Shown: positions 5,247 through 56,035 of the stretch, piece after piece
How positions within the stretch are numbered: position 1 is the stretch's first letter
How the letters are laid out: every line of letters begins with the position of its first letter
NCBI RefSeq assembly: GCF_011043545.1
Contig: NZ_JAAKGP010000008.1
Span: forward strand, 1-64,000
Length of the DNA: 64,000 nucleotides
From: Rhodobacter sp. SGA-6-6
GTDB taxonomy: Bacteria > Pseudomonadota > Alphaproteobacteria > Rhodobacterales > Rhodobacteraceae
Direction of reading: 5' to 3'
Notes under the pieces: model-generated
The model's database searches: none
What the model was told of the DNA's origin: nothing
What the model saw: the letters and a program-made list of their open reading frames with translations, nothing else
Program-made: the position numbers and the translations under genes

Positions 5247-5457
5247 CGGGCGGGATCAGGCGAGGCGCTGCCTCGCCCCCGCCCGTGCGAAAGGGTTGCA
5301 CCCGGAGACGGTGGCGACACGAGACCGGGAGAGGCCAGCGCCCGACCGGGCGGGCGTGAAGCGCCCGCCAAAAGGCGGGCGGGCGCTGGCCGGGCCTTTG
5401 GGGCCCGGCCGGACAAGGGGAAGCGTCGTGCTGTGGCGAAGGCACGCGCCTTCGCCA
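5247..5457 (-). repeat. Dispersed multi-hairpin repeat, copy A
   Basis: This is one of eight copies in the window and the only one in reverse orientation. Read on the minus strand it begins with GGCGAAGGC-type arms around a 4-base loop and ends with a GCGAGGC/GCCTCGC hairpin next to CGCACGGGCGGGGGCG-like sequence. It fills most of the 487-base gap between dusA and the TauE/SafE gene, where I see no gene. Confidence 0.85.
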
Positions 5458-5626
5458 AAAAAAAGCCCGCGGAGGTGAGGAGCCCTCTGACCAGCTCACC
5501 GTCCCGCCGCTCCGTTGCGCATGGAACTCCTACCCGAAGCCCGACCCCTCGCCCCCGGCATTTTCCGTCCCCCTCTGGCCCCCGGCGCGCCGGGCGGCTA
5601 AGCAGGGGCAACCCGGAGGTGCCGCG

Positions 5627-6442
5627 ATGACCGAGCTGTCCACCCTGCTGCCGATGCTGCTGGCGCTGATCGTGATCGGCGGCTTCGCCGGGGTGGTCGG
5701 CGGCCTTCTCGGCGTCGGCGGCGGCATCGTGCTGGTGCCGGCCTTCTTCTACGCCTTCACCGCGCTCGGCTACGGCGGCGGGCAGGTGATGCAGGTCTGC
5801 GTCGCCACCTCGCTGGCCACCATCGTCGTCACCTCGATCCGCTCGGTCTCGGCGCATCACCGCAAGGGGGCGGTGGACTGGACGGTGCTGAAGAGCTGGG
5901 GGCCCTGGCTGGTGGCCTCCTCCGCCGTGGGGGTCTTCGTGGCGTCCCGGGTGCCCTCGGCCGCCCTGCAGGCGGTGTTCGGGGTGCTGGCGGGGCTGGC
6001 CGGGCTGTGGATGGCCTTCGGGCGCGACTCGGCCCGGCTGGGGCAGACGATGCCGGGCGAGCCCCTGCGCGGGGCGATGGCCTCCGGCGTCGGCTTCTTC
6101 TCGGCGCTGATGGGGATCGGCGGCGGCACCTTCGGGGTGCCGCTGATGACGCTGTTCGGGATGCCGATCCACCGGGCGGTGGCGACGGCCTCGGGCTTCG
6201 GCGTGCTGATCGCGGTGCCGGCGGTGCTGGGGTTCCTGATGGTCCGGGCCGAGGGCGCGCCGCCCTGGACGCTGGGGGCGGTGAACGGGCCGGCCTTCCT
6301 GGTGGTGATCGGCACCACGCTGATGACCACGCCCTGGGGGGTGCGGCTGGCCCATGCGATGAACCCGAAGCCGCTGAAGCGCGCCTTCGCGGTGTTTCTG
6401 ACGCTGGTGGCGCTGAACATGCTGCGGAAGGTGCTGTGGTAG
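5627..6442 (+). CDS. TauE/SafE-family membrane exporter
   Basis: This 271-aa inner-membrane protein is almost wholly hydrophobic, with about eight predicted membrane segments. It carries the duplicated TauE/SafE glycine motif GGLLGVGGGIVLVP (about residue 24) and ALMGIGGGTFGVP (about residue 160). The family moves sulfite, sulfoacetate or other organic anions out of or across the cytoplasmic membrane. The substrate cannot be told from sequence, and the gene is not next to sulfur-metabolism genes. Its stop codon overlaps the probable GTG start of the next gene, so the two are likely co-transcribed. Confidence 0.85.
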   Translation: MTELSTLLPMLLALIVIGGFAGVVGGLLGVGGGIVLVPAFFYAFTALGYGGGQVMQVCVATSLATIVVTSIRSVSAHHRKGAVDWTVLKSWGPWLVASSAVGVFVASRVPSAALQAVFGVLAGLAGLWMAFGRDSARLGQTMPGEPLRGAMASGVGFFSALMGIGGGTFGVPLMTLFGMPIHRAVATASGFGVLIAVPAVLGFLMVRAEGAPPWTLGAVNGPAFLVVIGTTLMTTPWGVRLAHAMNPKPLKRAFAVFLTLVALNMLRKVLW

Positions 6443-17448: not shown

Positions 17449-17551
17449 GGAAGGGTCCTCAAATCTGTTGCCAAGCCCGCTGTAACCCTGTTCCCATGCG
17501 AGGGAAAGCCGGGAAGGGGACGGTTCCGGGAAGGACGGGGGAAGGCGACGG

Positions 17552-19030
17552 ATGGGGTTCTGGGCGGGCTTGGGCGCGGGCGGGCGCGCGGCGGTGATGG
17601 CGGCAGGCGGCGTGGCGGTGGCCGGCGGCGGCTACGGGCTGTGGCGGCTGTCGCAGCCCGCGCCGGTCGCGGAGCCTGCGGCCCTGGTGCCGGAGGTGGC
17701 GCCGGAGCCGGAGACGGCGGCTTCGGTCGAGGCGGAAGCGGCGGCCGAACCCGAGGCGGCCGCCGAAGCGGCGGAGGCGGCGGCTCCGGTTGAGGCCGAA
17801 GTTGCGCCGGAGGCGGCGGCAGAGCCCGAAGTGCCAGTCGAGGTGCCGGAGGCGGCCCCTGCGCCCGAGGTGACGGTGGACACCTGGCGGGTGGCGGCGG
17901 ATGGCGCGGCCACGGTGGCCGGGCGGACCGCGCCCGAGGCGCTGGTGCGGATCCTGGTCGACGGCGTGGTGGTGGCCGAGGCCAGGGCCGGCGCCGGCGG
18001 CGAGTTCGCGGCGCTGTTCACCCTGCCGCCCAACCCCGCGCCCTCGCTGATGACGCTGGTCGCGGTGCTGGCGGACGGGGCGGAGGTGGCGACCAAGGCC
18101 GCCATCGCCCTCGGCCCCATCGCCGGGCCGCAGGTCGCCGCGGCGGAGCCGGCGGAGGAGCCGGTGGCGGTGATGCTGACCGAGGAGGGCGCCGCGGTGG
18201 TGCAGGCGCCGGAACCGGAACCGGAGCCGGTGGCCGAGGCTGCGCCGGAGCCGGCCGCGGTGGCCGGGGTCAGCATCGACACCATCAGCTACACCGCCTC
18301 GGGCGCGGTGCAACTGGGCGGGCGCGGGCAGCCGGGGGCCTTCCTGCGCTTCTACCTCGACAACGCGCCGTTGCAGACCGTGCTGATCCCGGACGGCGGC
18401 CAGTGGTTCACCACGCTGAAGGAGGTGCCGCCGGGCCTCTACGTGCTGCGGGCCGACCAGCTGGACGATGCCGGCAAGGTGACCGGCCGCTTCGAGACGC
18501 CGTTCAAGCGCGAGACGCTGGAGGCTCTGGCCGCCGCGGCGGCAAGCCCGCGGGTGACCGAGGCCGCGCCGGAGGCGACACCGGCGGCGGAAGCGGAGGC
18601 GGCGCCGGAAGGGGCGGTGGCGGTGGCCGATGCCGGGGAGGCCGGGGTGCGGCCGGAACAGGCGGAGACGCCCGCCGAGGCCGCGCCGGAGCAGCCGGAA
18701 GTCGCGGAGGCGGAACCTGCGGAGGCCGCGCCCCCGCCGGAGGAGCCGGAGCCGCCGCAAACCGCCGAGGCCGCGCCGACCCCGGAGCCCGCGCCGGAGA
18801 CCGTGGCGATCTCCGAACCGGAACCGGCGCCGGAGCCCGTCACTGCGCCCCCGCCGCCTGCGCCCGTCACGGTGACGGTGCAGCCCGGTCACACCCTCTG
18901 GGCCATCGCCAAGGGCGAACTCGGCGAGGGCATCCTCTATGTCCAGGTCTACGAGGCCAACCGCGACGCCATCCGCGACCCGGACCTGATCTATCCGGGA
19001 CAGGTGTTCACCATCCCCTCGGGCGGTTAG
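17552..19030 (+). CDS. LysM-domain cell-envelope protein
   Basis: This 492-aa protein starts with a short signal-anchor ([21 protein letters not shown]). It continues with long runs of Ala, Glu, Pro and Val (about residues 40-115 and 330-445). Two Ig-like or CARDB-like beta segments (about 120-190 and 245-325, for example [20 protein letters not shown]) lie between the runs. It ends with a LysM peptidoglycan-binding domain ([15 protein letters not shown], then [13 protein letters not shown]). It is probably anchored in the inner membrane and touches peptidoglycan. Proteins of this layout are common in Rhodobacterales; their role is not established. Confidence 0.8.
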
Positions 19031-19053
19031 AGGTCCCATCTCGGACAGCGGAC

Positions 19054-19264
19054 TGGCGAAGGCCATCGCCTTCGCCACAGTGCACCATTTCAACCAGACC
19101 GGCCGGGACCATAAGTCCCGGCCAGCGCCCGCCCCGCCCTCGGCGGGCGCTTCTCGCCCGCCGGGTCGGGCGCTGGCCTCGCGTGGTTTAGCGCTGCCAC
19201 CGTCTCCGGGCGATATATCACGCACGGGCGGGGGCGAGGCAGTGCCTCGCCTTTCCCCGCCCGC
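19054..19264 (+). repeat. Dispersed multi-hairpin repeat, copy B
   Basis: Plus-orientation copy between the LysM gene and the convergent arsR gene. It starts with TGGCGAAGGCCATCGCC and ends near a GCGAGGCAGTGCCTCGC hairpin. Confidence 0.85.
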
Positions 19265-19279
19265 CCGGCCGGCGTCGGG

Positions 19280-19301
19280 GTAGGGCGGGGTTCACCCCGC
19301 C
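19280..19301. terminator. GGCGGGG-type hairpin between convergent genes
   Basis: GGCGGGGTTCACCCCGCC preceded by GTAG lies just after repeat copy B and 8 bases from the arsR stop. The same hairpin recurs at 21683, 38838, 43552-43613, 52036-52097 and 56049. It may end transcription of arsR on the minus strand. Confidence 0.5.
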
Positions 19302-19309
19302 GATCCGTC

Positions 19310-19660
19310 TTACAGGACCGGCGTCTCCGCTTCGGCCTCTTCCCGGCCATGGCGGCAGCAGGCCACCACTTCGGGATGCGCCATGCAGCAATCGCTCAGC
19401 AGCCAGCCGATCGCCCCGCCGATCCCCGCCGCATCGACGGCGTAGAACACGTTGCGCGCCACCCGGCGCGAGGTCAGCAGCCCGGCCCCCTCCATCGCCG
19501 ACAGATGGAAGGACAGCCGCGAGGACGACAGTCCCAGCCGCCGGGCGATCTCGCCCGCGGGCAGGCCCTCGGGGCCTTGCGGCACCAGAAGGCGGATCAG
19601 GTCCAGCCGCGCTTCGTGGGAAAGCGCCGAGAAGGCGGCGAGGGCTTTACTCCGGTTCAT
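19310..19660 (-). CDS. ArsR/SmtB-family transcriptional regulator
   Basis: This 116-aa winged-helix repressor has AFSALSHEARLDLIRLLV at the N-terminus, the recognition helix region GEIARRLGLSSSRLSFHLSAM, and the wing RRVARNVFYAVD. The end carries clustered cysteines and histidines (SDCCMAHPEVVACCRHG), a likely metal or metalloid sensor site. It is transcribed away from the Atm1-like exporter with a 92-base shared region holding an inverted repeat. The simplest reading is a metal-responsive repressor of itself and possibly of the exporter. Confidence 0.88.
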   Translation of the reverse strand: MNRSKALAAFSALSHEARLDLIRLLVPQGPEGLPAGEIARRLGLSSSRLSFHLSAMEGAGLLTSRRVARNVFYAVDAAGIGGAIGWLLSDCCMAHPEVVACCRHGREEAEAETPVL

Positions 19661-19662
19661 GG

Positions 19663-19686
19663 TTCAACTACTCATGCAGCGTTGAA
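19663..19686. promoter_or_regulatory. Candidate ArsR operator
   Basis: TTCAAC, 12 bases, then GTTGAA form a perfect inverted repeat 2 bases upstream of the arsR start codon, in the region shared with the divergent exporter gene. Size and spacing fit ArsR-family operators. Confidence 0.5.
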
Positions 19687-19752
19687 ATGGACCCTAGACC
19701 ACCGGGCGGGGCCGATCAATCCGCAAATCCGTGATCCAGACGAAGGCCCGCC

Positions 19753-21600
19753 ATGCGCCGCACCACCGCATCCGCACCGAACAGCGATACCGCCCCGCCG
19801 GCTTCGGGCTGGCAGACCATGGCGCGGATGCTGCCCTATCTCTGGCCGCAGGGGCAGGCCTGGGTGAAGCGGCGGGTGGCGGCGGCGCTGCTGCTGCTGC
19901 TGGCGGCCAAGGCGGTGTCGATCATCACACCCTGGATCTACAAGCTGGCGGTGGACGCGCTGACCGCCCGGACCGGCGGCGACCCCGCCGCGACGCTGGC
20001 GCTCGGCGCGGTCGGGCTGACGGTGGCCTACGGGCTGGCCCGGCTCGGCTCGGTCGCTTTCGGGGAATTGCGCGATGCGGTCTTCGTCCGCGTCGGCCAG
20101 CGGGCGCTGCGGCGGTTGGCGCTGGAGACCTTCACCCATATCCACCGGCTGTCCCTGCGCTACCACATCACCCGCAAGACCGGCGGCCTCAGCCGCATCA
20201 TCGAGCGGGGGGTGAAGGGCGTCGATTTCCTGCTGCGCTTCATGCTCTTCTCCATCGGGCCGCTGGTGATCGAGCTGACGCTGGTCTCGGTGATCTTCGC
20301 GGTCTGGTTCGGCTGGACCTATGCCGCGGTGGTCGTCGTCACCATCGCGCTTTACGTCGCCTTCACCTTCAAGGTCACCGAATGGCGGGTGAAGATCCGG
20401 CAGGAGATGAACGACCTCGACACCGATGCCAACCAGAAGGCCATCGACAGCCTGCTGAACTACGAGACGGTGAAGTATTTCAACGCCGAGGCGCGCGAGG
20501 CCGGCCGCTACGATTCCGCCATGCGCGGCTACGAGGCGGCGGCGGTGCGCACCGGCATCTCGCTGGCCTTCCTGAACATGGGCCAGACCTTCCTGATCAC
20601 CTCCGGGCTGGTGGGGGTGATGGTGCTGGCGGCGCGGGGCGTGCAGGCCGGGGAACTGACCGTGGGCGACTTCGTCATGGTCAATGCCTATATGCTGCAG
20701 ATCACCATGCCGCTGAACTTCCTCGGCACCGTCTACCGGGAAATCCGCCAGGCGCTGGTCGACATGGGGCAGATGTTCGGCCTTCTCGCCCAGCCGGCCG
20801 AGGTGGTGGACGCGCCCGACGCCAGGCCGCTGGCGGTGACGGGCGGCGAGATCGTGTTCGAGGAGGTCCGCTTCTCCTACGAGCCGGGGCGCGAGATCCT
20901 GAAGGGGCTGTCGTTCCGCGTCGGCCCGGGGCAGAAACTGGCGCTGGTCGGCCATTCCGGCAGCGGCAAGTCCACGGTGGGGCGGCTTCTGTTCCGCTTC
21001 TACGACGTGACCGGCGGCGCGATCCGCATCGACGGGCAGGACATCCGCGAGGTGGCGCAGGCCAGCCTGCACGCGCAGATCGGCGTGGTGCCGCAGGACA
21101 CCGTGCTGTTCAACGACACCATCCGCTACAACATCGCCTATGGCCGCGACGAGGCCGACGAGGCCGATGTGGTGGCGGCGGCGAAGGCGGCGCGCATCCA
21201 TGATTTCATCATGTCGCTGCCCGACGGCTACGACACCACGGTGGGCGAGCGCGGGCTGAAGCTCTCGGGCGGCGAGAAGCAGCGGGTGGGTATCGCCCGG
21301 ACGCTCTTGAAGAACCCGCCGATCCTGATCCTGGACGAGGCGACCTCGGCGCTGGACACCCAGACCGAGCGGTCGATCCAGGACTCCCTGGCCGAGATGG
21401 GGCAGGGCCGCAGCGTCATCGTCATCGCCCACCGGCTGTCCACCATCGCCGACGCCGACCGCATCCTGGTGCTGGAGGCGGGCCGGGTGATCGAGGAGGG
21501 CACCCACGACGAGTTGCTGGAGACCGGCGGCCGCTATGCCGCGATGTGGGCCCAGCAGATCGCCGAGGAGGAAGAGGACGAGGCGGTGGCGGCGGAGTAG
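19753..21600 (+). CDS. Atm1/HMT-type ABC exporter
   Basis: This 615-aa half-transporter has an N-terminal six-helix membrane domain (about residues 45-320) and a C-terminal ATPase domain. Walker A is GHSGSGKST (about residue 400), the signature is LSGGEKQRVGIARTLL and Walker B is LILDEATSALD. The sequence RFMLFSIGPLVIELTLV and the NYETVKYFNAEARE segment are typical of Atm1/ABCB7/HMT-1 proteins, which export glutathione-linked metals or a sulfur compound. The divergent ArsR gene argues for a metal-detoxification role. It functions as a homodimer in the inner membrane. Confidence 0.88.
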   Translation: MRRTTASAPNSDTAPPASGWQTMARMLPYLWPQGQAWVKRRVAAALLLLLAAKAVSIITPWIYKLAVDALTARTGGDPAATLALGAVGLTVAYGLARLGSVAFGELRDAVFVRVGQRALRRLALETFTHIHRLSLRYHITRKTGGLSRIIERGVKGVDFLLRFMLFSIGPLVIELTLVSVIFAVWFGWTYAAVVVVTIALYVAFTFKVTEWRVKIRQEMNDLDTDANQKAIDSLLNYETVKYFNAEAREAGRYDSAMRGYEAAAVRTGISLAFLNMGQTFLITSGLVGVMVLAARGVQAGELTVGDFVMVNAYMLQITMPLNFLGTVYREIRQALVDMGQMFGLLAQPAEVVDAPDARPLAVTGGEIVFEEVRFSYEPGREILKGLSFRVGPGQKLALVGHSGSGKSTVGRLLFRFYDVTGGAIRIDGQDIREVAQASLHAQIGVVPQDTVLFNDTIRYNIAYGRDEADEADVVAAAKAARIHDFIMSLPDGYDTTVGERGLKLSGGEKQRVGIARTLLKNPPILILDEATSALDTQTERSIQDSLAEMGQGRSVIVIAHRLSTIADADRILVLEAGRVIEEGTHDELLETGGRYAAMWAQQIAEEEEDEAVAAE

Positions 21601-21682
21601 GGGCTGCGGTTTGGGGCGCGGCGGGGTGAAACCTGCGGCCACGGCCGGCCATTGCCCGCTGGACTGATGGGAAACGGTTCCC

Positions 21683-21704
21683 GTAAGGCGGGGTTCACCC
21701 CGCC
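21683..21704. repeat. GGCGGGG-type hairpin
   Basis: GTAAGGCGGGGTTCACCCCGCC lies 82 bases after the exporter gene and directly before repeat copy C, the same order of elements seen in part at 19054-19301. Confidence 0.6.
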
Positions 21705-21719
21705 GATCCGACGATGCAA

Positions 21720-21930
21720 TGGCGAAGGCGCGTGCCTTCGCCACGGCGCACCATCTCAACCGGACCGGCCGGGCCCCAAAGGCCCGGCCAGCGCCCGCCC
21801 CGCCCTTGGGCCAGGCGCTTCTCGCCCGCTGGGTCGGGCGCTGGCCTCTCCGGGCCTCGTGCCGCATCGTCTCCGGTTGAACCGTCGCGCACGGGCGGGG
21901 GCGAGGCAGTGCCTCGCCTTGTCCCGCCCG
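21720..21930 (+). repeat. Dispersed multi-hairpin repeat, copy C
   Basis: Plus-orientation copy in the 437-base gap between the ABC exporter and the caspase-TPR gene. All four hairpin segments are present. An open reading frame runs from inside it into the caspase gene, but its codons are repeat-derived and should not be taken as an N-terminus. Confidence 0.85.
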
Positions 21931-22037
21931 GCCGGCAGGGGGATGCACGGGTCAGGAATGCCCGAGACCGGCGTTTTCCCTTTGACCGCGGCGGCCCGTC
22001 GCGCCAAGATCGCCGTCAAAGCTTTTGGACCAAGGCG

Positions 22038-25000
22038 ATGCTGCGCCGTGTTTTATTCGCCCTTTGCCTGCTGCTGGCGACCGTCTCGGCGGCCTTCGCC
22101 GAAAGGCGGGTGGCGCTGGTGCTGGCGACCGAGGACTACAAGTCCATCCGCAAGCTGGACAACCCGGTCAACGACGCGCGGGCGATGGAGACGCTGCTCG
22201 AATCCCTCGGCTTCGAGGTCTGGCTGGAGACCGACCGCGACCTGAAGCGGATGCGCCGGGCGCTGGAGGATTTCAAGACCGATGCCGCCGGCGCCGATGT
22301 GGCGCTGGTGTTCTATGCCGGCCACGGCGTGGCGCTGGACGGGGTGAACTACCTCTTGCCGACCGATGCCGATGCCACCTCCTCGGCCGCGCTGGCGGCC
22401 AGCGGCCTGCCGCTGGAGGAGGTCCGCGACGTGCTGGACGAGGTGGCGCCGATGGCGATCATGCTGCTGGACGCCTGCCGCGACGATCCCTTCGCCCAGG
22501 GCGCGACGGGGGACGGGCGCGGCGCCGTGCCGCTGTCGGGCGATCCGCCGGAGAAGAAGCCGCCCACCCCCGGGCTGGGGCGGATCGGCCGGGCCGACGG
22601 CGTCCTCTTCGCCTTCGCCGCCGCCCCCGGCGAGACCGCGGCGGACGGCAACGACGGCAACTCCCCCTTCACCTCGGCGCTCCTGCGCCATTTCGGCACC
22701 AAGGGGGTGGAGTTGAAATCGGCGCTGACGCTGGTGCAGCAGGATGTCTACGACCGCTCGCGCGGCAAGCAGCTGCCCTATATCGAAAGCGGCCTGGCCG
22801 AGTTGGTCTTCATCTCCGGCGAGGGCGATCTGCCCGAACGCGACCAGCTGCTGATGGCGATGGCCAGCATCACCCCCGAGCTGCGGCAGGAGGTGGAGGC
22901 GGTCGCGGCGGCGCATGACATGCCGCTGGCCCCGCTTTACGCGGCGCTGATCTCGGCCGACCTCGGCAGCCAGACCGCCGAGGACCGCCAGCGCCTGCTG
23001 CAGGAAGCGGCGGCCTCCTACGCGCAGTTCCAGCAGGGCCTGGTGAAATATGCCTCCAGCGACCCGCGGGTGGCCGAGCTGCGGGCCAAGGCCGAGGAGC
23101 AGCTGGCCCTCGGCGCCACCGCCGCCGCGCGCGAGCTGATCACCGAGGCCGCGGCCATCGACGCGCAGGCGCGGGAATCCCTGCAGGAGAACATCGCCGA
23201 GCTGACCGCGAACCTGGTGGAGCGGACGGTGTCCGAAGCCACCTCGCATGTGCTGAACGCCAATGCGGCCAAAACCGACCTGCGCTACGACCTGGCCATC
23301 GAGGACCTGACCAAGGCGGCCGAGCTTTATGCCTCGGTCAAGGACGGACTGGCCGACCGCGATACGAAATTCGCCTACAACGACGTTCTGCGCGATCTGG
23401 GCGATCTGCAGGTGCTGGCCGGCAACACCAATGCCGCCCTGGGCATCTACCTGACCCGCTCGGAATTCGCCGAGGCGCAGGTGGCGGCGAATCCGGCCGA
23501 TTTCGGCTGGTCGCGCGAGCTGGTCTGGGCGATGAACTCGGTCGGCGTGGTGTTGCAGCAGCAGGGCTATCTGCGCGAGGCCGAAGAGGCCTATACCCGC
23601 GCCTACGAGGTGACGGCGAAGCAGAACGTCGACACGCCGAACGACCTGCTGCTGATGCGCGACCTGGAGGTGGCGCTGAACAAGCTGGGCGACGTGCGCT
23701 TCGCGCTGAACGACCTGAACGGCGCGCTGCTGGCCTATCAGGAGGGGCTGGGGATCAGCCAGTCGCTGCTGGACCAGGACCCGGAAAGCATCCTCTACAA
23801 CCAGGACGTCTCGATCAGCCACGAGAGGATCGGCGACGTGCTGGTGGCGATGGGCGACCGGGCGGCGGCGCGCGACGCCTTCGACGTGTCGCTGATGATC
23901 TCGAAGAAGCTGGCCGACAAATATCCCGACGACATGGAGATCCGCCGCAACCTCTCGGTCTCCTACGAACGGCTGGGCGACACCATGCAGGCCGAGGGCG
24001 ACCTGGACGCGGCGCTGGCGGCCTTCCTGGAGGCGCAGAAGATCCGCGACGACCTGCTGGCGCAGGACCCCGGCAACGCCACCCGCAAGCGCGACGCCGC
24101 GCTGATCTACGAGCGTGTGGGCGAGGTCTACAACCGCATGGGCGACGCCGGTTCGGCGCTGATGAACCAAGAGGCGGCGCGGGGGATGCGGGCCGAGCTG
24201 GTGGCGCTGGACCCGTCGAACATGCTCTGGGCCCGCGATCTGTCGGTCAGCCACGAGAAGGTGGGGATGATCTACCAGCAGGAAGGCGAATTCGCCGGCG
24301 CGCTGGAGGCCTTCTCCGCCTGCCGCGACCTGCGGCTGGCGATCGCCGCGGTGGACCCGGGCAACCTGTCGGCGCAGCGCGACCTGGCGATCTGCATCCA
24401 CAAATGGGCGCAGGCCGAAGAGGGCTCGGGCGATCCGCAGGGCGCGCTTTCGGCGCACCGGACCGCGCTGGACATCCGCCGCGGCAATGCGGCGGCGGAC
24501 CCGGAGAACAAGATCTACCAGCTGGACCTGACCTTCTCGCTGTCGGCCATGGGCAAGCTGAGCTGGACGCTCGGCGACCTCGACGCGGCGATGGGGTCCT
24601 ATGACGAGACCATCCGCATCCTGCAGGCCATCGTGGCGCATGAGCCGGGCGACCTGCCCAGCCACTACGACCTGATGGTCTACAGCACCGACATGGCCGA
24701 TGTGCTGTTGCAGCGCGGCGACCTGGAGGCCGCGGCCGGCTATGCGCAGCTGTCGATGGCGGCGGCCGATGCGCTGCTGGCGGCCGATCCGAAGCTCTGG
24801 GACTACCGCCACGGCAAGCTGGTGGCGGCCAACCGCCTGGGCGATGCCAAGGCGCGGCTGCAGGATGCCGCCGGGGCGCTGGAAGGCTACCGGGTGATGG
24901 CCGAGATCGGCTACCAGCTGGCCTCCGAGGACCCCTACAACACCGGCGCGGCCTGGGATTACGCGCTGGCGATGCTGCGGTCGGGCGAGCAGAAGCTGGC

Positions 25001-25409
25001 GTTGCAGGACTATCCCGGCGCGCGGGCCGACCTGGAGGTCGCGGTGTCGATGCGGCGCTGGCTGGCCGGGCAGGACCCGGCGGCGGTGCAGCCGCAGCGC
25101 GAGCTGGGATGGGCCTTGCAGAAACTGGCCGACAGCCATTTCTACGAGCAGAACTACGACACCGGCCGCCCGCTGGAGGAGGAGGCGCTGGCCATCTTCC
25201 GCTGGGTGGACACGCAGGAGCCGGGGCAGGTCTGGAACATCGTCGACCTGGCGACGGCGCTGGACCGCGCCTCCAGCTACTACGGCGATCCGGCGCCCTA
25301 CCTGCGGGAATCGCTGGCGCTGCTGGAAGGCCTGCAGGCGCAGGGCACGCTGCCCGAGGGCTATCAGAGCTGGATCGACAATTACCGCAGCAAGCTGGGC
25401 GGCAATTGA
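22038..25409 (+). CDS. Secreted caspase-like (C14) TPR protein
   Basis: This 1123-aa protein starts with a signal peptide (LRRVLFALCLLLATVSAAFA). A caspase-like p20 domain follows (about residues 22-270), with RVALVLATEDY, the catalytic His in FYAGHGVALDG and the catalytic Cys in LLDACRDDPF. From about residue 410 to the end there are about 15 TPR-like helical repeats, with recurring phrases such as VSYERLGD, ISHERIGDV and AQRDLAICI at 50-60 residue spacing. It is presumably exported to the periplasm. Bacterial caspase homologues act in stress or death responses, but the target here is unknown. The start was placed at the ATG before the signal peptide. Confidence 0.85.
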   Translation: MLRRVLFALCLLLATVSAAFAERRVALVLATEDYKSIRKLDNPVNDARAMETLLESLGFEVWLETDRDLKRMRRALEDFKTDAAGADVALVFYAGHGVALDGVNYLLPTDADATSSAALAASGLPLEEVRDVLDEVAPMAIMLLDACRDDPFAQGATGDGRGAVPLSGDPPEKKPPTPGLGRIGRADGVLFAFAAAPGETAADGNDGNSPFTSALLRHFGTKGVELKSALTLVQQDVYDRSRGKQLPYIESGLAELVFISGEGDLPERDQLLMAMASITPELRQEVEAVAAAHDMPLAPLYAALISADLGSQTAEDRQRLLQEAAASYAQFQQGLVKYASSDPRVAELRAKAEEQLALGATAAARELITEAAAIDAQARESLQENIAELTANLVERTVSEATSHVLNANAAKTDLRYDLAIEDLTKAAELYASVKDGLADRDTKFAYNDVLRDLGDLQVLAGNTNAALGIYLTRSEFAEAQVAANPADFGWSRELVWAMNSVGVVLQQQGYLREAEEAYTRAYEVTAKQNVDTPNDLLLMRDLEVALNKLGDVRFALNDLNGALLAYQEGLGISQSLLDQDPESILYNQDVSISHERIGDVLVAMGDRAAARDAFDVSLMISKKLADKYPDDMEIRRNLSVSYERLGDTMQAEGDLDAALAAFLEAQKIRDDLLAQDPGNATRKRDAALIYERVGEVYNRMGDAGSALMNQEAARGMRAELVALDPSNMLWARDLSVSHEKVGMIYQQEGEFAGALEAFSACRDLRLAIAAVDPGNLSAQRDLAICIHKWAQAEEGSGDPQGALSAHRTALDIRRGNAAADPENKIYQLDLTFSLSAMGKLSWTLGDLDAAMGSYDETIRILQAIVAHEPGDLPSHYDLMVYSTDMADVLLQRGDLEAAAGYAQLSMAAADALLAADPKLWDYRHGKLVAANRLGDAKARLQDAAGALEGYRVMAEIGYQLASEDPYNTGAAWDYALAMLRSGEQKLALQDYPGARADLEVAVSMRRWLAGQDPAAVQPQRELGWALQKLADSHFYEQNYDTGRPLEEEALAIFRWVDTQEPGQVWNIVDLATALDRASSYYGDPAPYLRESLALLEGLQAQGTLPEGYQSWIDNYRSKLGGN

Positions 25410-25553
25410 CCGGCGGGCCGCGTCCGGGCGGGAGCGGAGTCGGGGGCGGAGTCGGGGGGCCGGGGCTTGGCAAGTCCGGCGCTTTGCCTGTAAGACGGGC
25501 CGAGGCAAGCGGCCCCGCCCGGCGAAGGGCGGCGCGGAAGGAAGGGCGGACGG

Positions 25554-26255
25554 GTGAGCACTCCTGACAGTTTCATCGAGGAAGTGACCGAGGAAGTCCG
25601 CCGCGACCGGCTTTTCCGGCTGTTCCGCAAATACGGCTGGATCGGCGTGGTGCTGATCCTGGCCATCGTCATCGGCACCGCGGTGGTGGAATGGCGCAAG
25701 GCCCGGGCCGAGACGCGGGCCGAAGCCTTCGGCGACGCGGTGCTGGAGGCCTATGACCTCGGCAGCGCCGAGGAGCGGCGGGCGGCACTGGCCGGCATTG
25801 CCGCCGACGGCGAGCAGAAGACGCTGCTGGCGCTGATCGAGGCCTCGGACCCGGCCGAGGACCGCGCGGCGACGCTGGCCGCGCTGGACCGGCTGATCGC
25901 CGATGCCGCGCTGGCCCCGGTCTACCGCGACCTCGCGGTGCTGAAGCGGGTGCTGGTGGCGGGAGCGGAGATGCCGCTGGCCGACCGCCGCGCCGCGCTG
26001 GAGCCGCTGGCGGTGCCGGGCCGGCCCTATCGCCTGCTGGCGCAGGAGCAGCTGGCCTATCTGCTGGTCGAGGAAGGCAAGGCCGGGGACGCCATCGCCG
26101 CGCTGCAGGGCCTGATCCAGGAGCAGGGGGTTTCCTCCTCGCTGCGCGACCGGGCGGGGCAGATGATCATGGTATTGGGCGGCAAGCCGGTGGAACCCGC
26201 GGCGGCCGAAGCGCCGGCGCCGGACGAGGACATGGAGGCCGGGGCGGAGGACTGA
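25554..26255 (+). CDS. YfgM-like TPR membrane protein
   Basis: This 233-aa protein has a cytoplasmic start (FIEEVTEEVRRDRLFRLFRKYGW), one membrane helix (IGVVLILAIVIGTAVVEW, about residues 25-42) and a periplasmic TPR-like domain. The layout matches YfgM, which works with PpiD at the Sec translocon and is typically encoded just before BamB and Der, as here. The start is GTG. The C-terminal 20 residues are rich in Pro, Ala, Glu and Asp. It is likely co-transcribed with the next two genes. Confidence 0.8.
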   Translation: MSTPDSFIEEVTEEVRRDRLFRLFRKYGWIGVVLILAIVIGTAVVEWRKARAETRAEAFGDAVLEAYDLGSAEERRAALAGIAADGEQKTLLALIEASDPAEDRAATLAALDRLIADAALAPVYRDLAVLKRVLVAGAEMPLADRRAALEPLAVPGRPYRLLAQEQLAYLLVEEGKAGDAIAALQGLIQEQGVSSSLRDRAGQMIMVLGGKPVEPAAAEAPAPDEDMEAGAED

Positions 26256-26292
26256 CCCCGCGGGGCAGGGACCGGAACCGGACGGAAACAGG

Positions 26293-27666: not shown

Positions 27667-27713
27667 GGCTTTCCCCGTGTAAGGGGGGCGCTTCGACATG
27701 ACGGACGCATGAG

Positions 27714-29186
27714 ATGAGCTTTACCCTCGCCATCGTGGGCCGCCCCAATGTGGGCAAATCGACGCTGTTCAACCGGCTTGTGGGCCGCAAGCTGGCGCTG
27801 GTGGACGACACCCCCGGCGTGACCCGCGACCTGCGCGAGGGCGAGGCGCGGCTCTTCGACCTGCGCTTCACGGTGATCGACACCGCCGGGCTGGAGGAGG
27901 TCACCGACGACAGCCTTCAGGGGCGGATGCGCCGGCTGACCGAACGCGCGGTGGACATGGCCGATGTCTGCCTGTTCCTGCTGGACGGGCGGGCCGGCGT
28001 CACGCCCTCGGACGAGGTGTTTGCCGACATCCTGCGCAAGAAGGGCGCAAGGGTGATCCTCGGGGTGAACAAGGCCGAGGGCAGGGCAGGGGAATCCGGC
28101 GCGCTGGAGGCTTATTCCCTTGGGCTTGGGGAGCCTTTGCGGCTGTCGGCCGAGCATGGCGAGGGCATGGATGACCTCTACGCCGTGCTGCGCCCGCTGG
28201 AGGGCGAGTTCGCCGCCCGCGAGGCCGAGATCGCCCCCGAGGTCGAGGTCGAGCTGACCGAGGAAGAGGCCGAGCAGGAGGCGGATGAATTCGCCCACCG
28301 GCCGACCGCGAAGAAGCCCTTGCAGATCGCGGTGATCGGCCGGCCGAATGCCGGGAAATCGACGCTGATCAACCGCATCCTCGGGCAGGACCGGCTGCTG
28401 ACCGGGCCGGAGGCCGGGATCACCCGCGACGCCATCTCGGTCAAGGCCGACTGGATGGGCACGCCGATCCGCATCTGGGACACCGCCGGGATGCGCAAGA
28501 AGGCCCGCGTGGTCGAGAAGCTGGAGAAGCTGTCGGTCGCCGACGGCCTGCGGGCGGTGCGCTTCGCCGAGGTGGTGGTCGTCCTTCTCGACGTGGAAAT
28601 CCCCTTCGAGACCCAGGACCTGCGCATCGCCGACTTCGCCGAGACCGAGGGCCGCGCGGTGGTGGTCGCCGTCAACAAATGGGACCTGGAGGACGACAAG
28701 CAGGAAAAGCTGGCCGAACTGAAGGAGATGTTCGACCGACTGCTGCCGCAGCTGCGCGGGGCGCCCCTGATCACCGTCTCGGGCAAGACCGGCCGCGGGC
28801 TGGACCGGCTGCACGACGCCATCATCCGCGCCCATGATGTGTGGAACCGCCGGGTGCCGACCGCCCGGCTGAACACCTGGCTCGGCGCGATGACCGAGGC
28901 GCATCCGCCGCCCGCCCCGGGCGGCCACCGGATCAAGCTGCGCTACATCACCCAGGCCAAGACCCGGCCGCCGGGCTTCGTGGTGAAATGCTCCCGCCCC
29001 GAGGAACTGCCGGAAAGCTACAAGCGCTATCTGGTCAACGGCTTGCGCGAGCATTTCGACATGCCCGGCACGCCGATCCGTCTCTATTTCCGCGGCCAGG
29101 GCGACGAGAATCCCTGGAAGGTGCGCAAGTTCAACACGCCGTCGCGGCTTAGGAAGCACAAGGACAAGATGAAGCCGAAGGGGTAG
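27714..29186 (+). CDS. der: Ribosome biogenesis GTPase Der (EngA)
   Basis: This 490-aa protein has two tandem GTPase domains and a KH-like end, which helps mature the 50S subunit. The first P-loop is GRPNVGKST (residues about 8-16) with the DTAGLEE switch and NKAEG. The second is GRPNAGKST (about residue 206) with [11 protein letters not shown] and NKWDLE. The KH-like domain contains [15 protein letters not shown] and ends in [14 protein letters not shown]. An acidic linker ([17 protein letters not shown]) separates the GTPase domains. A 26-bp palindrome follows the gene. Confidence 0.95.
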
Positions 29187-29206
29187 CGATCTCCGCGCGG
29201 AAATCG

Positions 29207-29232: not shown

Positions 29233-29240
29233 CCTTCGGG

Positions 29241-31667: not shown

Positions 31668-31691
31668 GCGGAGCGTCCCTCGGCCAGTCCA

Positions 31692-31903
31692 TGGCGAAGG
31701 CCATTGCCTTCGCCACGGCGCGACGCTTCCCCTTGTCCCGGCCGGGCCCCAAAGGCCCGGCCAGCGCCCGCCCGCCCCTCGGCGGGCGCTTCACGCCCGC
31801 CCGGTCGGGCGCTGGCCTCTCCCGGTCTCGTGTCGCCACCGTCTCCGGGTGCAACCCTTTCGCACGGGCGGGGGCGAGGCAGTGCCTCGCCTGATCCCGC
31901 CCG
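31692..31903 (+). repeat. Dispersed multi-hairpin repeat, copy D
   Basis: Plus-orientation copy in the gap (31668-32030) between the acyltransferase gene and yajC. All four hairpins are present, including GGCCGGGCCCCAAAGGCCCG. Confidence 0.85.
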
Positions 31904-32030
31904 GCCCGCAGTCCGCGAAGGCCCCACACGCCCGCTTGACCCGCTGCCCTCTGGCATCGCCGCCGAAAACCCCTTACATGGGCCGCAACGCGCCGGAACC
32001 GGCGCCTCTGTCCATCAGGAAAGGATGCCC

Positions 32031-32363: not shown

Positions 32364-32436
32364 GACCGGAGGCCAGCCGCCACCCCCGGGGCCGGGTCCC
32401 GGGAAACCCCGCGAAAGAAAAGACCGAGGCCCCGCG

Positions 32437-35446: not shown

Positions 35447-35447
35447 A

Positions 35448-42605: not shown

Positions 42606-43301
42606 ATGCGACAATTGGTCGGCGCCGCTTGCGGCCTCTGGGCGGCACTCGTCCCGCCCGTTCTGGCCGAACCCGTGGTGGTGGTGGAACTTTTCACCTC
42701 GCAGGGCTGTTCCTCCTGCCCGCCGGCGGACGAATTCCTGGAGGCGCTGGTCAAGGACCCGCGGGTGATCCCGCTGTCGCTGCATGTCGACTACTGGGAC
42801 TACATCGGCTGGGAGGACAGCTTCGCCGATCCGAAGTTTACCGAGCGGCAGAAGGCCTATGCCCGCGCCATCGGCTCGCGGATGATCTACACGCCGCAGA
42901 TGATCGTCGACGGCGAGGACCGGGTCGAGGGCTATGCCCCCGAGGAGCTGGCGGTGCATCTCGGCGACCATCTGGCGCAGCCGGCCCGGGTGACGCTGAC
43001 GGTGGAGCGCCGCGGCGATCTGCTGGTGATCCGCGCCGACGCCGACCCGCCGCTGACCGCGCCGGTGCGGGTGCAGCTGGTGCGCTACCGGCCCGAGGAG
43101 ACGGTGGAGATCCAGCGCGGCGAGAATGCCGGCAAGGTCATCACCTACCGCAACATCGTCACCAGCTGGGACAATCTGGGCGACTGGCCGGGCAATGCGC
43201 CGCTGGAACTCTCGGCCCCGGTGCAGGGCGCCGAGCCGGCGGTGGTGATCGTGCAGGAGGAAGGCCCGGCCTCGATCCTGGCGGCGGCAAGGGCGGAATA
43301 G
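42606..43301 (+). CDS. DUF1223 secreted thioredoxin-like protein
   Basis: This 231-aa protein has a signal peptide (RQLVGAACGLWAALVPPVLA). The DUF1223 domain starts with VVVVELFTSQGCSSCPPADE, in which CSSC is a thioredoxin-like pair. LSLHVDYWDYIGWEDSFAD and IYTPQMIVDGEDRVEGY follow, and the C-terminus is a beta domain. Family members are periplasmic, with a presumed redox role that has not been shown. It runs divergently from acnA. Confidence 0.88.
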   Translation: MRQLVGAACGLWAALVPPVLAEPVVVVELFTSQGCSSCPPADEFLEALVKDPRVIPLSLHVDYWDYIGWEDSFADPKFTERQKAYARAIGSRMIYTPQMIVDGEDRVEGYAPEELAVHLGDHLAQPARVTLTVERRGDLLVIRADADPPLTAPVRVQLVRYRPEETVEIQRGENAGKVITYRNIVTSWDNLGDWPGNAPLELSAPVQGAEPAVVIVQEEGPASILAAARAE

Positions 43302-43325
43302 GCCGCGACCATTCCCCGGCTTCCT

Positions 43326-43535
43326 TGGCGAAGGCCATCGCCTTCGCCACAGTGCAACGCTTCCCCTTGTCCCGGCCGGGACCACAAGTCCCGGCCAGCG
43401 CCCGCCCCGCCCTCGGCGGGCGCTTCTCGCCCGCCGGGTCGGGCGCTGGCCTCCCGGGGTTATGCGCTGCCATCGTCTCCGGGTGAACCGTCGCGCACGG
43501 GCGGGGCGAGGCAGTGCCTCGCCTGTTCCCGCCCG
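43326..43535 (+). repeat. Dispersed multi-hairpin repeat, copy E
   Basis: Plus-orientation copy between the DUF1223 gene and the convergent LpxL-type gene. It is followed by a pair of inverted GGCGGGG hairpins. Confidence 0.85.
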
Positions 43536-43551
43536 CGGACGGCGGGGGGGC

Positions 43552-48260: not shown

Positions 48261-48462
48261 GCTGCATCCTTTCCTTGGCTCGGGCCCGCAGGGGCCATAC
48301 GGAGGCATGGTCCATACGGGCGCAGGGAAAGGATAGCACGAAATCCCCGCGTCCCGGGTGTGTTTTCCGCGCGACCGGGCAGGGCGGCGGAAATCCCCAT
48401 GGAGGCTGACGGGGAGATCCGATGCCTGCCGGGTCACATTCGGCTTTCTCGCGCGTTCTGTC

Positions 48463-48675
48463 TGGCGAAGGCCATCGCCTTCGCCACCGTGCAATGGTTC
48501 GACCAAGACCGGCCGGGTGCCTCAAGCACCCGGCCAGCGCCCGCCCCGCCCCCGGCGGGCGCTTCTCGCCCGCCGGGTCGGGCGCCGGCCTCTCGGGGTT
48601 AGGGCTGCCACCGTCTCCGGGTGATGCGCTGCGCACGGGCGGGGACGAGGCAGTGCCTCGCCTTCTCCCGCCCGG
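48463..48675 (+). repeat. Dispersed multi-hairpin repeat, copy F
   Basis: This copy lies in the gap (48261-48738) after purB, in the orientation opposite to both flanking genes. All four hairpins are present. Confidence 0.85.
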
Positions 48676-48738
48676 CCGGAGCGGTGCAACATTCGGGCGC
48701 CTGCCAAGGCGTCGGCTCAACCGTGGAGGTCGCTCGCC

Positions 48739-51754: not shown

Positions 51755-51790
51755 TGCGGAGGGGGCCGTCGTCCGTATCTTCCGTCTGTC

Positions 51791-51978
51791 TGGCAAGGCC
51801 AATCGCCTTCGCCATGACGCAGCGCTTCCCCTTGTACCGGCCGGACCCCCAAGACCCGGGCGCTTCTCGCCCGCCGGGTCGGGCGCAGGCATCCTGGGGG
51901 CTTGAGTTGCCAGAGTTTCCGGGAGCTACTGCCACGCACGGGCGGGGGCGAGGCAATGCCTCGCCTGGCCCGGCCCGG
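51791..51978 (+). repeat. Dispersed multi-hairpin repeat, copy G (degenerate)
   Basis: This copy is shorter and more diverged than the others. The first hairpin reads GGCAAGGCCAATCGCCTTCGCC and part of the second and third hairpins is deleted, but the terminal GGCGAGGCAATGCCTCGCC is kept. Confidence 0.75.
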
Positions 51979-52035
51979 CCCGGCGAAACCGGGCGGCGGC
52001 GGCCAACCGGAACCATTCCTCCCAGGAAACCGGGC

Positions 52036-53609: not shown

Positions 53610-55651
53610 TATCCCTTCAAAGCCGCCGCCCGTGCCGCCACCGCCTGTTCGGCCTCGCGGCCCGAGAGCTGCTCCAGATGGTGGAAGCCGGCGGTGTAGA
53701 AACCCACCCCCAGCGTCTGGCTGCGCAGCTCGGTGATCAGCCCCTCCATCTCTGCCGCCGGCATCAGCGCCGAGACCTCGTCCCAGCCCTTCCAGCCCTC
53801 TTTCGCGTCGAAGCCCAGAAGCTGCCCGCGGCGCGAGGTGACGATGCGCTGCGCCTTCGGCGTGAACTCTGACGGCACCGAGAGGATCACCTCCATCACC
53901 GGCTCCAGCAACACCGGGTTGCAGCCGGGCAGCGCCTCGGCCATCGCCTTGGCGCCGGCCTTCTGGAAGGCGAAGTCGGAGCTGTCCACCGTATGATAGC
54001 TGCCGTCGGTCAGCACCACGGCCATGTCCACCACCGGAAAGCCCAGGGGCCCGCGGGAAAGCGCGGTTTCCACCCCCTTCTGCACCGCCGGGATGTATTG
54101 CTTCGGCACCACCCCGCCGGTGATCCGGTCGGAGAAGCCGAAGCCCTCGCCGCGGGCGCGGGGGGCGATCTCCAGCACGATGTCGGCGAATTCGCCATGG
54201 CCGCCGGATTGTTTCTTGTGCCGCGTGTGGATGGTCGCGGGCTTGCTGATCGTTTCGCGGTAGGAAACGGCGGGCCGGGCGGTCTTCACCGCCAGCCCGG
54301 CCTCGGACTTCAGCTGCGACAGCGCCACCGCCAGATGGATGTCGCCCTGTCCGGTCAGCAGCGTCTCGGCGGTCTCGGGCCGCACCTCGACCCGCAGCGC
54401 CGGGTCCTCGTCGCAGAGCCGGGCCAGCGCGGCCGACAGCTTGGCCTCGTCCGCCGGATGCTCGGCCCTTATCGCCAGCGCGGCGACCGGGGCAGGGGGG
54501 TCGGGCCAGTCCGCCCGGTTGTGCAGCCCCTCGCCGATCAGGTCACCCGCCTTCACCGCCGCCATCCGGCCGAGGACGACGACCTCGCCCTCGCCCGCCG
54601 CACCCTTGGCGGTGAACTTGCGCCCCAGGGAGGAGGAGACCGAGCCCACCCGATCCGGGCCGAGGGTCATGCCGTCCCTGACCTCGCCGCGCCAGATGCG
54701 GGCGAGGGCGGCGCGCCCGGCCTGGCCGGACTGGAAGGTCTTGATCACCTGCGCCAGCGGCTCTGACGCCGGCAGTCCCAGCCGGGCGGCGGTAGCGGCC
54801 GGGAAGGGGCAGTCGTGGCGCAGCGCCTTCCACAGCCGGCGCACGCCGTTCTCCTGCTCGGCGGCGCCGAAGAACACCGGCACCACCAGGTCCTGTTCCA
54901 GGTCGCGGGTCAGCGAGGCGTAGATCTCGGCCGGCGCTGGCACCATGTCGGAGAGGACCTGTTCGAGAATGGCATCGTCGAAATCCGCCAGCGCCTCGAT
55001 CATCGCCGCGCGGGCGGCGCCCTCGTCGCCCTTGGCCGCCTCGGGCAGCGGGATCAGGTCCGAGGGCTTTTGCGGGTTCCACTGCCAGGCCCGTTCCGAC
55101 ACCAGGTCGATCATGCCGGTGACATGGCGGGCGCCATCGCGGATCGGGATCTCGCGCAGGGCCAGCGGCCGGTCGGAAAAGCCCTGCAAGGCGTGGAAGG
55201 TTGCCCGCACATGCGCCTCGGGCGCGTCCATGCGGTTGACGAAGACCAGATGCGGGATGCGGCGGTCGTCGAGGAATTTCAGGATCGGCGAGACGGCGAG
55301 GACGCGCTCGGGGAAGGGGTCGCAGACCACCACGGCCAAGTCGGCCACCATCAGCGCCGCGCGGGTGTCGGACAGAAGCTCCACCGAGCCGGGGCAGTCG
55401 ATCAGCGCCCAGTCCTCGTCCATGAAGCGGCAGGAGGCGACCGAAAGCTCGGTCGAGATGCCGCGCGCCCGCGCCTCGGGGGCGGCGTCGCCCACGGTGT
55501 TGCGGTCCTTGGCGGTGCCGCGTCGGTCGGTTGCGCCGGCGGTGTGCAAAAGCGCCTCGAAAAGCGTGGTCTTGCCGCTGCCATGCGCGCCAACCAGCGC
55601 GGCGCATCGGGTGCCCCGTCTTGCCTCGGGATTCGCGGTCTTCGGGCTCAT
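53609..55651 (-). CDS. EF-G-like translational GTPase paralogue
   Basis: This 680-aa protein has the EF-G layout with altered GTPase motifs: P-loop GAHGSGKTT, switch region DCPGSVEL instead of the usual DxPGHVDF, and NRMD. Domain II follows, and then domains III-V with HTRHKKQSGGHGEFADI and QLLGFDAKEGWKGW. Loss of the canonical switch His argues against being the main elongation factor. Related EF-G-like proteins in alphaproteobacteria have unknown or stress-related roles. It is upstream of dddP on the same strand, separated by a strong nested hairpin. Confidence 0.85.
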   Translation of the reverse strand: MSPKTANPEARRGTRCAALVGAHGSGKTTLFEALLHTAGATDRRGTAKDRNTVGDAAPEARARGISTELSVASCRFMDEDWALIDCPGSVELLSDTRAALMVADLAVVVCDPFPERVLAVSPILKFLDDRRIPHLVFVNRMDAPEAHVRATFHALQGFSDRPLALREIPIRDGARHVTGMIDLVSERAWQWNPQKPSDLIPLPEAAKGDEGAARAAMIEALADFDDAILEQVLSDMVPAPAEIYASLTRDLEQDLVVPVFFGAAEQENGVRRLWKALRHDCPFPAATAARLGLPASEPLAQVIKTFQSGQAGRAALARIWRGEVRDGMTLGPDRVGSVSSSLGRKFTAKGAAGEGEVVVLGRMAAVKAGDLIGEGLHNRADWPDPPAPVAALAIRAEHPADEAKLSAALARLCDEDPALRVEVRPETAETLLTGQGDIHLAVALSQLKSEAGLAVKTARPAVSYRETISKPATIHTRHKKQSGGHGEFADIVLEIAPRARGEGFGFSDRITGGVVPKQYIPAVQKGVETALSRGPLGFPVVDMAVVLTDGSYHTVDSSDFAFQKAGAKAMAEALPGCNPVLLEPVMEVILSVPSEFTPKAQRIVTSRRGQLLGFDAKEGWKGWDEVSALMPAAEMEGLITELRSQTLGVGFYTAGFHHLEQLSGREAEQAVAARAAALKG

Positions 55652-55846
55652 GTCTAGCCTCCCTTCGGGCCTTGGGACGGCCGTCGGGGCGGGGCGCGGG
55701 CTCAAGGCGGCCCGTCCTCGCCCGGCCGCCGGTTCGGGGGCGCCATGACCGCGCCCCATGCGGCCAGCTTAGACGCGGGGGAAGCGCCCTGTCGCGCGGA
55801 ATCGTCACCGCGGCGGCATCGGGTCGCGGGCTCCCCCTGGCTTCCT

Positions 55847-56035
55847 TGGCGAAGGCCATCGCCTTCGCCACATTCCGACGCTTCACCTTGTCCCGGCCAG
55901 CGCCCGCCCCGCCCCCGGCGGGCGCTTCTCGCCCGCCGGGTCGGGCGCTGGCCTCTGTAGTCTCGTGCCGACAGGTCTCCGGTTGAACCCATCCGCACGG
56001 GCGGGGGCGAGGCAGTGCCTCGCCTTCTCCCGCCC
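55847..56035 (+). repeat. Dispersed multi-hairpin repeat, copy H
   Basis: This copy lies between two divergent genes, so it cannot be serving as a terminator for either. It lacks the GGCCGGG/CCCGGCC hairpin of full copies but keeps the first, third and fourth segments. The 195 bases before it (55652-55846) hold nothing recognisable. Confidence 0.8.

What the first reader, a model, noticed from the sequence alone, without database searches (positions are those of the whole stretch)
5247..56035. Eight copies of a 190-213 bp multi-hairpin repeat, all between genes
Copies at 5247, 19054, 21720, 31692, 43326, 48463, 51791 and 55847 share an order of hairpins: GGCGAAGGC/GCCTTCGCC, then GGCCGGG/CCCGGCC, then a long GCCAGCGCCCG/CGGGCGCTGGC stem enclosing GGCGGGCG/CGCCCGCC, then GCGAGGC/GCCTCGC. 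The size is constant, the sequence is well kept and none is in a gene. One lies between divergent genes, so the element is not simply a terminator. About one copy per 8 kb implies hundreds per genome. It could be a MITE-like element, a BIME-like binding site or a structured RNA.
Basis: seen in the sequence. Interest (0 to 1): 0.8.

Follow-up and report, generated by a model that had tools for sequence, protein, structure and literature searches.

The report
Shuffled four-hairpin repeats at gene ends
This bacterium carries hundreds of copies of a 210-base DNA element built of four hairpins, mostly placed just after genes; the hairpins are kept almost unchanged while the sequence between them looks shuffled among the copies, as if the copies formed a recombining population inside one genome.

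Summary
Eight copies of a ~211-bp four-hairpin element lie between genes (5238-5458 on minus, seven on plus; two with internal deletions). A 1.26-Mb sample of the genome holds 89 copies, none inside a predicted gene, so about 300 per genome. A covariance model finds the family in 59 of 394 Rhodobacteraceae genomes (100 bits or more in 11) and in 1 of 385 genomes drawn from the class, the own. Across genera two stems change by compensated pairs. Two sites tested are empty in most relatives read. There is no target duplication, no inverted ends, no Rfam match and no Y1 (REP-type) transposase in the genome. Two things were not foreseen. (1) Stems differ from consensus by 1% and linkers by 22-31%, yet linker variants more than about 15 bp apart are nearly in linkage equilibrium, and copies at the same site in two sister species have linkers no more alike than random copies. 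So copies seem to exchange short tracts. (2) 73 of 89 copies point along the leading strand, but two relatives do not share this. Best reading: a new kind of REP/BIME-like intragenomic repeat population, spread by an unknown factor that recognises the hairpins. Mechanism is inferred.

The parts
5238..5458 (-). copy 1 of the four-hairpin element, reversed relative to the others
19053..19272 (+). copy 2, 22 nt after the stop of gene 17552-19030
   Evidence: no copy in 12 relatives' loci read at this site
21719..21939 (+). copy 3, between tandem genes 19819-21600 and 22038-25409
   Evidence: among 10 relatives' loci read at this site only G014 has a copy, in the opposite orientation
31691..31912 (+). 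copy 4, 23 nt after the stop of gene 30717-31667; 3' half 98% and 5' half 90% identical to copy 1
43325..43539 (+). copy 5, reference copy; 23 nt after the stop of gene 42606-43301, convergent pair
43326..43349 (+). hairpin H1 of the reference copy (TGGCGAAGGC / GCCTTCGCCA)
43374..43396 (+). hairpin M2 of the reference copy (GGCCGGGAC / GTCCCGGCC)
43397..43447 (+). module M3: outer stem AGCGCCCG / CGGGCGCT around GGCGGGCG / CGCCCGCC; the 5' arm can pair with the middle strand instead
43498..43535 (+). module M4: outer CGGGC / GCCCG around an inner stem (GGCGAGGC / GCCTCGCC)
48462..48680 (+). copy 6; M2 tip changed in a compensated way (GGGTGC / GCACCC)
51790..51986 (+). copy 7, internal deletion in M2-M3
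55846..56042 (+). copy 8, 5' arm of M2 deleted; between divergent genes

Best explanation
The element is a non-coding, four-hairpin intergenic repeat of the Rhodobacteraceae that lives as a population of copies inside the genome. SHOWN: about 300 copies by extrapolation, none of 89 in a predicted gene, concentrated after stop codons in this genome; two sites empty in most relatives read; the same architecture in several genera with H1 and M4 stems changed in step; stems almost invariant within a genome while linkers vary; linker variants close to linkage equilibrium; linkers of copies at one site no more alike between sister species than linkers of random copies. INFERRED: new copies arise and old ones are overwritten by a process that copies short tracts between elements (gene conversion or template switching at the hairpins), and a trans-acting, sequence-specific hairpin-binding factor decides which copies persist or are copied, so that H1 and M4 stems stay uniform within a species but change together between genera. 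Placement after genes most likely reflects tolerance: insertions into genes and promoters are lost. An extra host benefit at gene ends (boundary or 3'-end structure) is possible and unproven.
For: Copies and context: (37 convergent, 46 tandem, 6 divergent; gaps of 30 bp or more, filled ones included: 123, 463, 179). Empty sites. Patchy spread: 157 last-hairpin pattern hits in the own genome, 0 in the 12 other genomes of the genus (one of them, G001, has 3 matches to the model), but copies in more distant Frigidibacter. Covariation: 52 cells changed on both sides against 16.0 (sd 3.1) in shuffles and 0-8 in slid controls. Stems against linkers: 1.0% against 31% and 22% divergence, with equal singletons per site, 49 in 109 and 29 in 64. 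Linkage: r2 0.24 at <=3 bp, at the permuted level beyond 60 bp; 220 of 228 pairs of biallelic sites more than 10 bp apart show all four combinations, each in at least 3 copies. Beyond 12 bp only five pairs exceed r2 0.1; four join the two arms of M3 (0.45-0.78), the fifth is weak (0.11). The stem/linker contrast repeats in G013 and G014. Orthologous copies: linker identity 0.64-0.74 in 6 pairs against a mean of 0.68 for 378 cross-species pairs.
Against: No mobilising enzyme was found, and neither exchange nor insertion was seen happening. Linkage equilibrium could also come from recurrent mutation; several linker sites carry three or four common bases, and at such sites the singleton comparison says little. 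Within the genome compensated stem changes are almost absent (2 of 43 pairs). The ortholog test rests on 6 pairs, 4 of them with both flanks clearly alignable in the same orientation. Avoidance of divergent gaps is weaker in relatives: 4 of 16 placed copies in G013 and 4 of 20 in G014, against 6 of 89. The leading-strand polarity of the own genome (73 of 89) is unexplained and not shared (G013 4 of 17, G014 10 of 20).
Confidence: 0.55

Rival explanations
1. Linkers are simply fast-mutating or old and saturated; each copy evolves alone, and stems are held by host-level selection on every copy. No exchange between copies is needed.
For: Linkage equilibrium is also expected under saturation; some sites (35, 138, 162, 166, 168) have 3-4 common bases. 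Orthologous copies have unrelated linkers, as a hypermutable linker would.
Against: 23 sites are biallelic at 20-49% with third alleles at 5% or less, 10 of them transversions. Alleles come in short blocks, such as the CATC and GCGT loops, with strong linkage at <=3 bp (r2 0.24-0.45), which single-base mutation does not make.
Confidence: 0.22
2. A single-strand DNA element of the REP/RAYT or IS200/IS605 type: hairpin ends are cut by a Y1 HUH transposase and inserted into lagging-strand template, which would give orientation bias.
For: Hairpins at both ends, no target duplication, leading-strand polarity 73 of 89 in this genome. Lagging-strand targeting by IS200/IS605 members is stated in PMC6006769 (passages seen).
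Against: No Y1_Tnp in the own genome nor in 21 of the 22 others searched, including G013 and G014; polarity not kept in two relatives; GTAG within 10 bases of either end in 0 of 83 copies. Other HUH classes (IS91 type) were not searched.
Confidence: 0.12
3. A structured RNA or 3'-UTR module kept for RNA function (processing, stability, termination), spread by duplication.
For: 3'-end placement in this genome, covariation across genera, stable RNA fold (z -5.3), two alternative folds of M3.
Against: The DNA fold is as exceptional (z -6.1); G-U changes are not commoner than A-C in most stems within the genome; no Rfam match; no U-tract terminator in three copies; orientation to the neighbouring genes is mixed.
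Confidence: 0.1
4. A replication-polarised site like KOPS or Chi that marks the leading strand.
For: 73 of 89 copies co-orient with the contig's majority KOPS GGGNAGGG direction, also in convergent gaps (33 of 37) and next to lagging-strand genes (17 of 25).
Against: G013: 4 of 17 co-oriented; G014: 10 of 20.
Confidence: 0.03

Closest known systems
REP / REPIN with RAYT (TnpA-REP)
   Same: High-copy intergenic hairpins forming an intragenomic sequence population (PMC8049555, abstract and section list seen; PMC3116915, search listing only)
   Different: Four different hairpins in a fixed 210-bp order, no GTAG at the ends, no Y1 transposase in the genome; interior close to linkage equilibrium
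BIME of enterobacteria (recalled)
   Same: Mosaic of palindromes outside genes, at gene ends, rarely between divergent genes (recalled)
   Different: BIMEs combine variable numbers of REPs (recalled); here four unlike modules in constant order that rarely occur outside full copies
CGTC-tagged palindromic repeats of alphaproteobacteria (PMC3733652, passages seen)
   Same: Alphaproteobacterial palindromes without a known dedicated transposase
   Different: REPs there are 20-40 bp with a CGTC tag; here CGTC is directly at the left end in 1 of 83 copies and at the right end in 0
RIME of Rhizobium (cited in PMC2873474, passages seen; otherwise recalled)
   Same: Alphaproteobacterial intergenic mosaic of palindromes about 100-200 bp (recalled)
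   Different: Not compared by sequence here

Membership tests
REP/RAYT | Y1 (RAYT) transposase in the genome | tested here: not met
   none in the own genome; 1 of 23 genomes searched (G262) has a match
REP/RAYT | GTAG (or CGTC) tag beside the palindrome | tested here: not met
   83 of 89 copies with both ends found: GTAG within 10 bases of either end in 0; CGTC at -4..-1 in 1 and within 10 bases left in 5
MITE | terminal inverted repeats | tested here: not met
   ends TGGCGAAGGC and CCCGCCCG are not inverted copies
MITE | target site duplication | tested here: not met
   0 of 83 copies with 4 bp or more; 6 of 83 with 2-3 bp, about as when shuffled (4.5)
BIME-like intergenic mosaic repeat | high copy, outside genes, mostly after genes | tested here: met
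   for the own genome; in G013 and G014 also 0 of 38 in genes, but 8 of 36 placed copies in divergent gaps
BIME-like intergenic mosaic repeat | binding by host proteins (IHF, gyrase, Pol I in enterobacteria; recalled) | not testable with these tools
   needs DNA-binding experiments
Known Rfam family | match above gathering score | tested here: not met
   only a tRNA in the window; 3 matches up to E 1 in 20 relatives' loci, all below gathering score; one (BjrC68, L214:369-436, E 0.03) is near that locus' copy at 449-652
Intrinsic terminator | hairpin followed by a T-run | tested here: not met
   none of 4 sites in 17500-33000 falls in the three copies there; the test was not applied to the other copies
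RIME of Rhizobium | sequence similarity to RIME | not tested
   no RIME sequence was fetched

The most novel reading that the evidence does not exclude
Copies are made and continually rewritten by template switching at hairpin stems, so that each copy is a fresh mosaic of linker segments: a freely recombining population of several hundred 210-bp elements inside one bacterial chromosome, with selection acting mainly on the hairpins and a co-evolving recognition factor in each genus.
Probability: 0.25. Interest if true: 0.85.

Novelty: new variant of a known kind. Interest (0 to 1): 0.6.

Why it matters
Bacterial interspersed repeats are usually treated as copies that each mutate alone. Here hundreds of copies behave like a recombining population, with freely varying linkers and constrained hairpins, and the hairpins changed in step between genera. 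This makes population-genetic tests possible inside single genomes and points to an unknown hairpin-recognising factor in a large, ecologically common family. It also offers about 300 natural insertions, mostly after genes, on which any effect on transcript ends can be measured.

Tried and rejected
First gene calls locked onto shadow reading frames and were replaced by a caller seeded on codon-position GC; it is home-made and unvalidated. GC skew was weak and mixed on C1, so KOPS counts (motif recalled) were used to set replication direction, one direction per contig; on C1 (44 against 83) and C12 (18 against 48) this is not clean. Target duplication, terminal inverted repeats, Y1 transposase, conserved replication polarity and U-tract termination were tested and rejected. 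Reverse transcriptase occurs in 4 of 12 carrier genomes searched, including the own one, so it is not a general requirement; whether the own one matters was not followed. RNAalifold on 63 copies of one genome gave almost no covariation (2 of 43 pairs); the signal is between genera. Solo modules were sought as a clue to an autonomous form in 864 kb: 15 H1, 1 M2 and 2 M3 hits outside full copies, five H1 and one M2 of them at E<0.01; three truncated copies were read and none had the other end beyond a gene in the stretch shown. Precise empty-site joints were not obtained: intergenic DNA of G013 and G014 is too diverged. Of 9 G013 sites looked up in G014, 2 have a full copy, 2 a shortened one, 1 a fragment and 4 none (nhmmer; two of the nine G014 stretches were not printed). 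The second composite of flanks (10 G014 sites, printed) was never searched. Literature: searches showed no paper on this repeat in the listings seen; only PMC papers under open licences are held.
Full report
Observation. The eight copies are real and lie between genes. The consensus of 63 copies is 211 bp, from TGGCGAAGGC to CCCGCCCG. Modules: hairpin H1; hairpin M2; M3, a long outer stem around an inner hairpin; M4, an outer stem around an inner hairpin. Linker 1 lies between H1 and M2 and linker 2 between M3 and M4. Copy 1 is on the minus strand and copies 7 and 8 carry internal deletions.

Number and place. In 1.264 Mb of the own genome (4.29 Mb, 67 contigs) nhmmer finds 89 copies above 90 bits, about 300 per genome by extrapolation. 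A model search of the whole genome scored 150 candidates and all matched. None of 89 overlaps a predicted gene by more than 60 bp; 37 lie in convergent, 46 in tandem and 6 in divergent gaps, against 123, 463 and 179 gaps of at least 30 bp, filled ones included. In the first 864 kb, 29 of 131 convergent gene pairs carry a copy. Where the upstream gene is co-oriented, the 5' end lies 18-27 nt after its stop in 19 of 47 copies; where the downstream gene opposes, the 3' end lies 15-39 nt from its stop in 21 of 42. Genes were called by my own script. In relatives the placement is less tidy: of 17 fetched G013 copies 6 are convergent, 6 tandem, 4 divergent, 1 unplaced; of 21 G014 copies 5, 11, 4 and 1; none in a gene.

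Empty sites and turnover. After the stop at 19030, none of 12 relatives' loci read has a copy; after the stop at 21600, 1 of 10 does. That one, G014, has its copy in the opposite orientation, and F. albus (G013) has there another, different hairpin-rich sequence. Between G013 and G014, aligned stretches of which are 85-96% identical, sites show the element in both, in one only, in opposite orientations, or replaced by other sequences.

Distribution. In its genus the last-hairpin pattern is in 1 of 13 genomes, the own one. G001 of the genus has three matches to the covariance model; the other 11 were searched only by pattern and by DNA (list cut). Over a gene where G001 is 81% identical to the own genome, G013 and G014 are 75%, so carriers can be more distant than non-carriers such as G010 (82%). 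In the family 59 of 394 genomes match the model at E <= 1e-5; 11 reach 100 bits (at most 6 candidates scored per genome, stricter filters). Of 20 family stretches read by eye, 9 have all four modules, 10 only M2-M3 and one is unclear. In the class sample 1 of 385 genomes matched at E <= 1e-6, the own.

Structure. Twenty-one copies chosen by hand from the own and ten other genomes (A3) fit the four-hairpin structure, M2 left out of the count: 94.9% of cells paired; 52 cells with both sides changed against 16.0 (sd 3.1) in shuffles and 0-8 in slid controls; the measure of further pair types is not above shuffles (15 against 15.8). The changes are in H1 (GGCGAAGGC, GGCAGGGGC, GGCAGAGGC, GGCCAAGGC and others) and in the inner stem of M4; 3 rows have two unpaired cells in H1, and the outer stem of M4 is paired in 83% only, partly by misalignment. 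M3 shows none; its 5' arm pairs with the middle strand in 207 of 210 cells, against 156 of 168 for the outer pairing. Among the 89 own copies both are near 98%, so two folds compete. The outer pairing is supported within the genome: the linked changes at 83/84 and 111/114 join its arms (r2 0.45-0.78). Single-strand folding is exceptional as DNA (z -6.1) and as RNA (z -5.3). Within the genome A-C departures are at least as common as G-U ones in all stems but H1, so the data do not point to RNA of the given strand.

The copies as a population. Stem sites (109, drawn from the consensus pairs, with M2 tip and M3 inner extension left out) differ from consensus in 1.0% of cells, linker 1 (22 sites) in 31% and linker 2 (42 sites) in 22%. 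Singletons per site are alike: 49 in 109 and 29 in 64; alleles seen at most twice are slightly rarer in stems (p 0.019). Mutations thus seem to enter both classes at similar rates but do not become common in stems; at saturated linker sites this comparison is weakened. Linkage among 89 copies is strong at <=3 bp (r2 0.24), weak at 9-30 bp (0.02 against 0.012 permuted), hardly above permuted at 31-60 bp and at the permuted level beyond 60 bp. Among 23 biallelic sites, 220 of 228 pairs more than 10 bp apart show all four combinations with at least 3 copies each; besides the M3 arms one weak pair (42-144, r2 0.11) stands out. G013 (19 copies) and G014 (18) show the same contrast of H1 stem (0.8% and 0.3%) and linker 1 (33% and 34%) and low linkage, with small samples.

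In-place rewriting. Six orthologous G013-G014 pairs, one of them inverted, have linker identity 0.64-0.74; 378 cross-species pairs average 0.678 (sd 0.056), so the orthologs fall at percentiles 20-88. Both flanks align well for four of the five same-orientation pairs. Linkers therefore seem to turn over faster than the flanks. I infer exchange between copies; hypermutable linkers are the main rival.

Polarity. In the own genome 73 of 89 copies follow the leading strand as set by KOPS (p 7e-10), also in convergent gaps (33 of 37) and beside lagging-strand genes (17 of 25). F. albus has 4 of 17 and G014 10 of 20, one copy undecided. This speaks against a conserved replication signal but leaves the own bias unexplained.

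What moves it. No target duplication (83 of 89 copies with both ends found), no inverted ends, no Y1 transposase in 22 of 23 genomes, reverse transcriptase in 4 of 12. The factor is unknown. Known parallels are REP/REPIN populations (PMC8049555, abstract; PMC6006769 and PMC3733652, passages) and BIMEs (recalled). It works like these but fails the tests for REP/RAYT and MITE, so I file it as a new variant of the intergenic palindromic repeats.

Noticed in passing
window 19287, 21690, 52039, 56052 and own contigs C1, C23: A second palindrome family (GGCGGGGTGAACCCCGCC, often an inverted pair about 60 bp apart) lies beside many copies, often 17-20 bp from an end (9-52 bp at these four window sites); 23 of 32 sites in 864 kb lie within 80 bp of a copy.
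   Followed up: partly
L083:3740-3960 and L014:430-630: A different hairpin-rich element (GCCCGGAACAAGGCGC... in L083) occupies sites in one Frigidibacter genome where the sister genome has the element.
   Followed up: no
L220, L221, L223, L226, L228, L229: An M2-M3 core of about 85 bp stands alone in other Rhodobacteraceae genomes, possibly an ancestral or reduced form.
   Followed up: partly
L203, L211, L028: Tandem runs of the element, some copies partial, with spacers in G289 and G015.
   Followed up: no
window 43397-43447: M3 has two competing folds: the 5' arm can pair with the middle strand or with the 3' arm.
   Followed up: partly
own contigs C1, C12, C23, C65, C66: Leading-strand polarity of copies in the own genome, not found in the two relatives tested.
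   Followed up: partly
window 17663-18743: Gene 17552-19030 holds a long degenerate repeat, seen as repeat family D1; it looks rich in Glu, Ala and Pro codons by eye, not translated.
   Followed up: no
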